Shown piece by piece: positions 20,283 to 21,547 of a stretch of 64,000 bases of DNA. The DNA lies in the NCBI RefSeq assembly GCF_041468085.1, contig NZ_CP121017.1, positions 4,437,501-4,501,500 on the forward strand, read 5' to 3'. This DNA comes from Tistrella mobilis. Lineage in GTDB: Bacteria > Pseudomonadota > Alphaproteobacteria > Tistrellales > Tistrellaceae. Numbering within the stretch: position 1 is the stretch's first letter; each line of letters starts with the position of its first letter. The notes beneath the pieces are model-generated. The model saw only the letters and a list, made by a program, of their open reading frames with translations, had not been told where the DNA came from and did not search any database. The position numbers and the translations under genes were made by a program.

Positions 20283-20311
20283 AGATACGCGGCCCGGCGC
20301 TGAGTGGATCA
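20283..20311 (-). promoter_or_regulatory. Candidate RpoE-type (autoregulatory) promoter of rpoE-chrR
   Basis: Read on the minus strand: TGATCC (20311-20306), an 18-base spacer, then TATCT (20287-20283). TGATCC with a TA-rich -10 at this spacing is the pattern of RpoE/ChrR-controlled promoters in Rhodobacter. It starts transcription roughly 30 bases before the rpoE ATG, as expected for autoregulation. Confidence 0.6.
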
Positions 20312-20313
20312 GT

Positions 20314-20351
20314 GCAAAACGACGCCCCGCGAAAAAAGTTCCGCGGGGCGT
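20314..20351 (-). terminator. Terminator after the GGDEF gene
   Basis: ACGCCCCGCG at 20322-20331 pairs perfectly with CGCGGGGCGT at 20342-20351. On the minus strand the hairpin is followed by CGTTTTG. It lies just beyond the GGDEF stop and before the rpoE promoter. Confidence 0.65.
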
Positions 20352-20385
20352 GTGTCTGCCAGGGGCCGGTCCGGTCGATGCCGGA

Positions 20386-21399
20386 TCAACGGGGACTGCG
20401 GCTGCGGCGGCCATCCAGGCCGGCCTCGGCGCGGGCAATCAGCCTGCCGATATCCTCGCCCGGTTGCAGGGTGGCGCGCGAGACGGACAGGGCAATCCGC
20501 CCCACGGCCTCCCGATTGTCGCGACGTACGATCCGCCGGCCCGAGACGATGTTGCGGATCTGCTCGGCGATCGCGCTGGATTCGCCTTCTGTTGTATGGG
20601 GCAGCGCAACGGCGAAGCGCTGGGCGCCGAAGCGGGCGGCGACGTCGCGTCCGCGCACGCCGTCGGCCAGGGTCTTGCCCACCAGCCGCAACACCTGGTC
20701 GCCGATGCCGGGCCCATGGGCGGCGGCGATGGTGTCGAACCCCTCGATATCGACCAGCATGACGGTCAGCGGATCGCCGGTCTCGCGGGCCAGTGCGATC
20801 TCCTCGCCCAGGCGCAGCTCAAAATGCCGGCGGTTGGCGAGACCGGTGAGCGGATCGGTGGCGAGTTCGCGCCGGACCTTGTCCAGATCGCGGCGGACAC
20901 CGCCGATCTGGTCGGTTGCAGCGTCGAGCGAGCGCACCGCGCCTTCGGTGCGCTGGGCCGTGCGTCGGGCCAGCAGCGCCAGTCCCCGTGCCGCCTCGGC
21001 CAGACGCCGGGGATCGACGGCATCGCCATGCTCCAGCCGTTCGGCCAGACGCTGCGCCTCGTCGGCTGCCGTGTCGAGCGCCGAGCGGGCGCCTTCTGCC
21101 GCGGTGAGTGCCCGTTCCGCCTCTGCGGCGAGCCGGGCGCCGCCTTCGCGGACCGCCTGGGCCTCGCGGGCCATGCCGAAATGCCGCTCGAAGGCTTCCC
21201 GCAGGAAATCCGGGGTCAGCTGCCCGCCATCGGCCAACAGCCCGTCGATCGCCCGGCTGAGTTCCGGGTCGCGACCGGCCTCATGAACGTAGGCCACCGT
21301 GTAATTGATCGGATTTGGCGCAACTGCGTGGGATTTGAGAAGTCCGAGGGCAGCCTGTGCGTGGGATTCCGACCGATCGGTCTGTTCCGCGTATTCCAC
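20386..21399 (-). CDS. Degenerate GGDEF-domain protein, probable c-di-GMP receptor
   Basis: GTG at 21399 is chosen because GGAGGGG stands at the right distance; an ATG 26 codons earlier has no ribosome site and adds atypical sequence. The 337-residue protein has a helical N-terminal domain (PNPINYTVAYVHEAGRDPEL near residue 28), a coiled coil at about 80-180, then a GGDEF domain from DPLTGLANRR (182). The signature at 258-262 reads GAQRF instead of GGDEF/GGEEF, removing the catalytic acidic residues. The inhibitory I-site RxxD (Arg249-Asp252, RGRD) remains exactly five residues before it. Synthesis of c-di-GMP is therefore unlikely and binding is likely. No membrane segments are seen, so it is probably cytoplasmic. 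Confidence 0.88.
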   Translation of the reverse strand: MEYAEQTDRSESHAQAALGLLKSHAVAPNPINYTVAYVHEAGRDPELSRAIDGLLADGGQLTPDFLREAFERHFGMAREAQAVREGGARLAAEAERALTAAEGARSALDTAADEAQRLAERLEHGDAVDPRRLAEAARGLALLARRTAQRTEGAVRSLDAATDQIGGVRRDLDKVRRELATDPLTGLANRRHFELRLGEEIALARETGDPLTVMLVDIEGFDTIAAAHGPGIGDQVLRLVGKTLADGVRGRDVAARFGAQRFAVALPHTTEGESSAIAEQIRNIVSGRRIVRRDNREAVGRIALSVSRATLQPGEDIGRLIARAEAGLDGRRSRSPR

Positions 21400-21448
21400 G
21401 CGACCCCTCCGACAACTCTGCTGCACACATGGCGCCGATATCTCCGGC

Positions 21449-21482: not shown

Positions 21483-21547
21483 AGCTTAATGGCCCAATTG
21501 TTTAAGAGTCGTTAACACACGCCGCAACGCAACAACGATGGCTTCGC

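What the first reader, a model, noticed from the sequence alone, without database searches (positions are those of the whole stretch)
20386..21399. GGDEF protein that kept its c-di-GMP I-site but lost its active site
Seen: the signature is GAQRF (residues 258-262), with no acidic pair, while RGRD (249-252) sits exactly five residues before it, the spacing of a true I-site. Known: proteins such as PopA and PelD bind c-di-GMP this way without making it. Inference: this is a soluble c-di-GMP effector. The N-terminal domain and coiled coil would be the output, and the rpoE-chrR stress operon next to it is a possible functional neighbour.
Basis: partly seen in the sequence, partly recalled or inferred. 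Interest (0 to 1): 0.6.

Follow-up and report, generated by a model that had tools for sequence, protein, structure and literature searches.

The report
Catalytically dead DgcB-type GGDEF protein
In the bacterial genus Tistrella, an enzyme that relatives use to make the signal molecule c-di-GMP has lost its catalytic residues but kept its fold and its possible c-di-GMP inhibitory-site motif, so it is probably now a sensor or partner protein: a new example of a kind already known.

Summary
In detail: window 20386-21399 (minus strand) encodes a 337-aa protein with GAQRF at 258-262 and RGRD at 249-252, five residues before it. The genus is Tistrella. All three Tistrella species held carry both motifs, and the gene is under strong purifying selection (dN/dS 0.05-0.07), so it is not decaying.

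All 94 relatives examined from other families of the class, which include the lineage of Caulobacter DgcB, keep an intact active site. Tistrella alone has lost nearly every substrate, metal and phosphate residue, while the N-terminal domain evolved at the normal family rate. Cyclase activity is therefore very unlikely.

Whether it still binds c-di-GMP is open. RxxD alone is weak evidence: about half of all GGDEF domains have it, the family norm here is KxxD, similarly conserved columns were kept by Tistrella about half the time, and the supporting arginines (PleD R313, R390) are absent. The N-terminal domain is inherited from active cyclases, so "output" would reverse its ancestral role.

The rpoE-chrR link is not supported: a strong terminator and an exact ECF promoter separate the genes, and the arrangement was not found outside Tistrella. 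If it binds c-di-GMP, it is a new member of a known kind (PopA, CdgA, YdaK, SgmT).

The parts
20386..21399 (-). 337-aa protein: N-terminal helical domain, coiled coil, degenerate GGDEF domain
   Evidence: Open frame with GTG start and stop; Pfam GGDEF 180-328; 96% identical in two other Tistrella genomes, dN/dS 0.054-0.071
21404..21410 (-). ribosome-binding site GGAGGGG before the GTG start
   Evidence: Sequence; identical in both other Tistrella genomes
21172..21360 (-). N-terminal domain, residues about 14-76, shared with active cyclases of the DgcB-like family; no Pfam model
   Evidence: Profile A2 finds it in 45 of 144 class genomes; identity to relatives 0.299 against 0.297 among relatives; no Pfam hit
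20866..21171 (-). long helical, probably coiled-coil, linker, residues about 77-178
   Evidence: Predicted helices 63-123 and 130-180 (moderate confidence); 6ttr is described as coiled coil plus GGDEF of Caulobacter DgcB
20416..20862 (-). GGDEF domain, residues 180-328
   Evidence: Pfam; model matches the Caulobacter DgcB GGDEF domain 6tts, 1.3 A over 147 columns
20644..20655 (-). RGRD (249-252), candidate primary I-site at PleD positions 359-362
   Evidence: unchanged in 3 of 3 Tistrella genomes despite synonymous changes in codons 251 and 252
20614..20628 (-). GAQRF (258-262), degenerate active-site signature; GG[ED]E[FL] in all 94 relatives, F in all but one
20316..20351 (-). intrinsic terminator hairpin and T-rich tail after the GGDEF gene
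   Evidence: Folding of 20310-20366: -30.8 kcal/mol, z -5.7, no shuffle as good; conserved in 3 of 3 Tistrella genomes. The automatic consensus scan did not list it
20286..20311 (-). ECF promoter TGATCC-N16-CGTA of rpoE-chrR, downstream of that terminator
   Evidence: Exact match to the consensus of the P. syringae RpoE-type sigma factor (PMC5507510); conserved in 3 Tistrella genomes
21495..21516 (-). conserved block GTTAACGACTCTTAAACAATTG upstream of the gene; possible regulatory element, function unknown
   Evidence: Identical in 3 Tistrella genomes amid diverged sequence; its 17-bp core is unique in the genome at up to 2 mismatches

Best explanation
The protein is a former diguanylate cyclase of the DgcB-like soluble family whose catalytic function was lost on the branch leading to Tistrella (loss shown from sequence; inactivity inferred). 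It most likely works as a c-di-GMP-responsive non-enzymatic protein: c-di-GMP made by the genome's other cyclases binds the retained RGRD site of the GGDEF domain, changes the association of the coiled-coil dimer or GGDEF domains, and so alters how the conserved N-terminal domain engages its partner or cell location (binding, conformational step and output are all inferred).
For: Loss of catalysis: Tistrella replaces K332, N335, D336, H340, G369, E370 and E371 (PleD numbering), residues that are 98-100% conserved in 94 relatives, and also the C-terminal lysine and arginine (37 of 37 and 33 of 33 in relatives). Losses are concentrated in the active site: 8 of 13 conserved active-site columns against 5 of 26 other conserved columns of the domain, Fisher p 0.012. 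Not decay: dN/dS 0.05-0.07 for the whole gene and low in both halves. RGRD is kept in all three genomes at the correct position, with the canonical R where most relatives have K. The N-terminal domain is conserved at the family rate. c-di-GMP is available: the genome has 17 GGDEF matches, most with an intact signature, and 6 EAL matches. Precedent: CdgA (GVNEF plus RxxD) has no cyclase activity and binds c-di-GMP at about 2 uM (PMC3271064); YdaK (SDERI) needs its RxxD (PMC5422440); SgmT (GGGVF) binds through RxxD (PMC3509222).
Against: RxxD occurs in about 53% of GGDEF domains (PMC3974145), and Tistrella kept 8 of 16 comparably conserved columns elsewhere in the domain, so keeping it is not significant alone. 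PleD R313 and R390, which support I-site binding (from memory of the PleD work), are L203 and Q280 here, though relatives mostly lack R there too. Most relatives have KxxD, so it is unsure that the ancestral family used a functional I-site. No binding was tested, and no partner or output is known.
Confidence: 0.52

Rival explanations
1. A c-di-GMP-independent pseudo-cyclase. The N-terminal domain and coiled coil still bind a partner or a cell site, and the dead GGDEF domain acts as a dimerisation or heterodimer partner (for example a dominant brake on other cyclases). RGRD is kept as a structural or inherited feature.
For: The N-terminal domain is the part conserved at the normal rate, while GGDEF identity to relatives fell to 0.39 against 0.50 among relatives. 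Supporting I-site arginines are absent. Tistrella kept half of similarly conserved columns by default. Degenerate GGDEF domains with c-di-GMP-independent roles are described in PMC3974145 (CdpA).
Against: RGRD has the canonical arginine and is unchanged in all three species; RxxD-bearing degenerate GGDEF proteins tested elsewhere (CdgA, YdaK, SgmT, PopA) do bind c-di-GMP.
Confidence: 0.36
2. The degenerate domain binds another nucleotide or ligand (GTP, ppGpp or a new ligand) in the former active-site pocket.
For: D327, F331 and D344 equivalents are kept. PleD has been solved with ppGpp and pppGpp bound (entries 9g85 and 9g86).
Against: The guanine contact N335, the phosphate lysine and arginine and the metal ligand E370 are all lost.
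Confidence: 0.07
3. Still an active diguanylate cyclase despite the unusual signature.
For: Signatures altered at the first position (AGDEF in VCA0965, SGDEF in ECA3270) can be active (PMC3974145).
Against: Here the second, third and fourth positions are changed, as are N335, K332, H340 and the C-terminal lysine and arginine. AGDAF and GGAAF versions of other cyclases are inactive (PMC3974145, PMC3271064).
Confidence: 0.02
4. A decaying gene on its way to loss.
For: Long stem branch to Tistrella (1.66 changes per column against a median end branch of 0.55).
Against: Intact frame, terminator and ribosome-binding site in three species; dN/dS 0.05-0.07, like cobT (0.04-0.10).
Confidence: 0.03

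Closest known systems
DgcB (CC1850) of Caulobacter crescentus
   Same: Best sequence and fold match of the GGDEF domain (6ttr/6tts); soluble, coiled coil before GGDEF. A relative retrieved here by full-length match (L132) hits 6ttr at E 2e-67 over the coiled coil and GGDEF domain.
   Different: DgcB is an active cyclase controlling motility and holdfast (PMC3764195); its I-site position reads PPRF, with no RxxD. The Tistrella protein has the reverse pattern. The N-terminal domain of DgcB itself was not compared, since the solved chains lack it.
PopA of Caulobacter
   Same: Degenerate active site with an intact RxxD used for c-di-GMP binding (PMC3509222, citing Duerig 2009).
   Different: PopA is a response regulator with receiver domains (from memory); none is found here. 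The same Tistrella genome has a separate, more PopA-like receiver protein (L016).
CdgA (Bd3125) of Bdellovibrio
   Same: Degenerate signature (GVNEF), RxxD five residues upstream; inactive; binds c-di-GMP (PMC3271064).
   Different: Binding is measured there and not here; no sequence comparison with CdgA was made.
YdaK of Bacillus subtilis and SgmT of Myxococcus
   Same: Degenerate GGDEF domains with RxxD acting as receptors (PMC5422440, PMC3509222).
   Different: YdaK is a membrane protein in an exopolysaccharide operon; SgmT is a histidine kinase. Neither has this N-terminal domain as described.
PelD of Pseudomonas
   Same: Inactive RxxD-type c-di-GMP receptor.
   Different: Described as unrelated to GGDEF domains though carrying an I-site-like sequence (PMC3509222), and belongs to the Pel polysaccharide system; no such context here.

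Membership tests
GGDEF domain superfamily (PF00990) | Score above the Pfam gathering cut-off | tested here: met
   100.1 bits against 23.8; fold match to GGDEF structures
Active diguanylate cyclases | GG(D/E)EF signature with acidic metal ligand | tested here: not met
   GAQRF in 3 of 3 Tistrella genomes; intact acidic pair in all 94 relatives
Active diguanylate cyclases | Guanine- and phosphate-binding residues (N335, K332, K442, R446; assignment partly from memory) | tested here: not met
   A225, D222, R332, P336 here
Active diguanylate cyclases | Synthesis of c-di-GMP from GTP | not testable with these tools
   Needs purified protein
Degenerate-GGDEF I-site receptors (PopA, CdgA, YdaK, SgmT kind) | Degenerate active site | tested here: met
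Degenerate-GGDEF I-site receptors (PopA, CdgA, YdaK, SgmT kind) | RxxD five residues before the signature | tested here: met
   RGRD 249-252
Degenerate-GGDEF I-site receptors (PopA, CdgA, YdaK, SgmT kind) | Supporting arginines at PleD 313 and 390 | tested here: inconclusive
   L203 and Q280 here; also mostly not R in relatives. How far they are required is not settled here
Degenerate-GGDEF I-site receptors (PopA, CdgA, YdaK, SgmT kind) | Binding of c-di-GMP through RxxD | not testable with these tools
   Needs ITC or DRaCALA
DgcB-like soluble cyclase family (N-terminal domain, coiled coil, GGDEF) | The shared N-terminal domain | tested here: met
   Profile hit E 8.5e-25; full-length matches in most of the 119 of 386 class genomes with a match, Tistrella included
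DgcB-like soluble cyclase family (N-terminal domain, coiled coil, GGDEF) | Intact catalytic site | tested here: not met
   Tistrella is the only exception among those aligned
PopA orthologue | Receiver domains before GGDEF | tested here: not met
   Only GGDEF found by Pfam
rpoE-chrR stress operon | Same transcription unit or sigma promoter | tested here: not met
   Terminator between the genes, rpoE has its own ECF promoter, no such site before the GGDEF gene

The most novel reading that the evidence does not exclude
A DgcB-type cyclase was turned, in one genus, into a c-di-GMP receptor by loss of catalysis while its I-site changed from the family's usual KxxD to canonical RxxD, reversing signal flow so that the old input domain became the output.
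Probability: 0.2. Interest if true: 0.5.

Novelty: new member of a known kind. Interest (0 to 1): 0.3.

Why it matters
If it binds c-di-GMP, it would be a clear case of an enzyme lineage converted into a receptor, with many active relatives for comparison and three Tistrella species fixed in the new state. That would allow direct tests of whether an input domain can become an output domain. As it stands, degenerate GGDEF proteins with RxxD are common and several are characterised, so the general idea is established.

Tried and rejected
(1) Chance RxxD: the position is homologous to the I-site in relatives, so it is inherited rather than random, but its retention is not significant by itself. 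(2) Operon with rpoE-chrR: rejected. The automatic terminator and promoter scan listed nothing; the hairpin was found by eye and tested by folding. (3) Intact paralogue in the same genome: none with this N-terminal domain. (4) The genome-contig scan gave only T. mobilis and distant GGDEF domains. (6) Ancestral state of R against K at position 249: the tree around Tistrella is unresolved and only the quick tree finished. (7) No Pfam model for the N-terminal domain in this protein or in six relatives. (8) No paper in the held library links Tistrella with c-di-GMP signalling.

Full report
WHAT IS THERE. The minus-strand frame 20386-21399 encodes 337 residues from a GTG start with a GGAGGGG ribosome-binding site. 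Pfam finds one domain, GGDEF, at residues 180-328. RGRD is at 249-252 and GAQRF at 258-262.

ORGANISM. A 96% identical copy lies in Tistrella mobilis KA081020-065 (L070); the window's genome is congeneric with it. Three Tistrella species are held (G000, G001, G002), and all carry the gene in the same place with the same motifs.

FAMILY. Full-length relatives at 26-37% identity occur in roughly a third of the class genomes sampled: 119 of 386 have a match at E 1e-25 or better, nearly all covering both halves. Ninety-four non-Tistrella relatives were aligned. A profile of the N-terminal domain hits 45 of 144 class genomes, once or twice each, almost always at the start of a frame of cyclase length. 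The closest solved structure by sequence and by fold is the GGDEF domain of Caulobacter DgcB, an active soluble cyclase that controls motility and holdfast (PMC3764195).

ACTIVE SITE. All 94 relatives keep the acidic pair of the signature and the guanine-binding N335 and H340. Tistrella differs at PleD positions 329 (D to E), 332 (K to D), 335 (N to A), 336 (D to A), 340 (H to P), 369 (G to A), 370 (E to Q) and 371 (E to R), and keeps 327, 331, 344, 368 and 372. The C-terminal lysine (K in 37 of 37 relatives that reach it) and arginine (33 of 33) are R and P. Among columns conserved at 90% or more in the domain, 8 of 13 active-site columns changed against 5 of 26 others (Fisher p 0.012; the active-site set was chosen from knowledge of the PleD structure, recalled rather than tested). 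Loss of catalysis is therefore specific and nearly certain. A single change at the first position of the signature would not have been enough to say so (VCA0965 with AGDEF is active, PMC3974145), but here the second, third and fourth positions and several separate binding residues are gone.

NOT A PSEUDOGENE. Between the three species dS is 0.14-0.32 and dN 0.009-0.019, dN/dS 0.05-0.07, similar in the N-terminal half (0.05-0.06) and the GGDEF half (0.06-0.09) and comparable to the neighbouring cobT (0.04-0.10). The long stem branch (1.66) followed by strong constraint fits a change of function followed by conservation (inference).

WHICH PART IS CONSERVED. Mean identity of the Tistrella protein to relatives, against relatives among themselves, is 0.299 and 0.297 for the N-terminal domain, 0.156 and 0.226 for the coiled coil, and 0.39 and 0.498 for GGDEF. 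The N-terminal domain has kept its usual constraint, while the rest diverged. Relatives use this domain in front of an active cyclase, so its ancestral role is more likely input, partner binding or localisation than output.

THE I-SITE. In relatives the position reads KxxD in 58, RxxD in 18 and something else in 18. Tistrella has RxxD. This is compatible with a working primary I-site. The caution is quantitative: about 53% of GGDEF domains have RxxD and about 24% have a degenerate signature (PMC3974145), and Tistrella kept only 8 of 16 non-active-site columns of 75-90% conservation and 12 of 18 of 60-75%, so retaining R and D could be chance. PleD R313 and R390 equivalents are L203 and Q280. 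Codons 251 and 252 show synonymous but no amino-acid changes among the three species, which only echoes the constraint on the whole gene.

NEIGHBOURS. The gene lies between cobT (upstream) and rpoE-chrR (downstream), all on the minus strand. Directly after the GGDEF stop a strong hairpin with a T-rich tail folds at -30.8 kcal/mol (z -5.7) and is conserved in all three species. It is followed by TGATCC-N16-CGTA (20286-20311), an exact match to the promoter consensus of an RpoE-type sigma factor that also drives its own rpoE-chrR pair in P. syringae (PMC5507510). No such site lies before the GGDEF gene. Ten loci around relatives from other genomes show no rpoE, chrR, cobT or asparaginase homologue within about 5 kb. 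The neighbourhood is therefore no evidence of shared function. In P. syringae one target of that sigma factor is annotated as a diguanylate cyclase, so a general link between this stress response and c-di-GMP is not excluded, but nothing here points to this gene.

MECHANISM. Shown: loss of the active site, conserved gene, intact RGRD, inherited N-terminal domain, many other intact cyclases in the genome. Inferred: no cyclase activity (about 0.98), c-di-GMP binding (about 0.55), an effect passed through the coiled coil to the N-terminal domain (less). The main rival is a c-di-GMP-independent pseudo-cyclase or heterodimer partner (0.36).

VERDICT. If it binds c-di-GMP it is a new member of the known kind of degenerate GGDEF receptors.

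Noticed in passing
L016:1495-2958 (G000:C4, around 2269972-2270412): The same genome has a second degenerate GGDEF protein: a PleD-like protein with a receiver domain (aligns with PleD along its whole length) whose signature region reads ADDST, with RVED at the I-site position. It looks more like PopA than the protein in the finding does.
   Followed up: partly
window 20286-20311 (-): Exact ECF promoter TGATCC-N16-CGTA before rpoE-chrR. Eleven exact copies in the genome against none for the reversed pattern, a possible start for the regulon of this sigma factor.
   Followed up: partly
window 21495-21516 (-): A 22-bp block GTTAACGACTCTTAAACAATTG upstream of the GGDEF gene is identical in three Tistrella species amid diverged sequence.
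   Followed up: partly
L013 and L017 (G000:C4, around 1119945 and 553184): Two GGDEF-EAL proteins of the genome have altered GGDEF signatures (LADEF, DQDTY), so several of the 17 GGDEF domains are degenerate.
   Followed up: no
L132, aligned to PDB 6ttr: The Caulobacter DgcB chain 6ttr reads GGAAF at the signature where the relative L132 has GGEEF, probably an engineered inactive form; DgcB lacks RxxD (PPRF) although it was crystallised with c-di-GMP.
   Followed up: no
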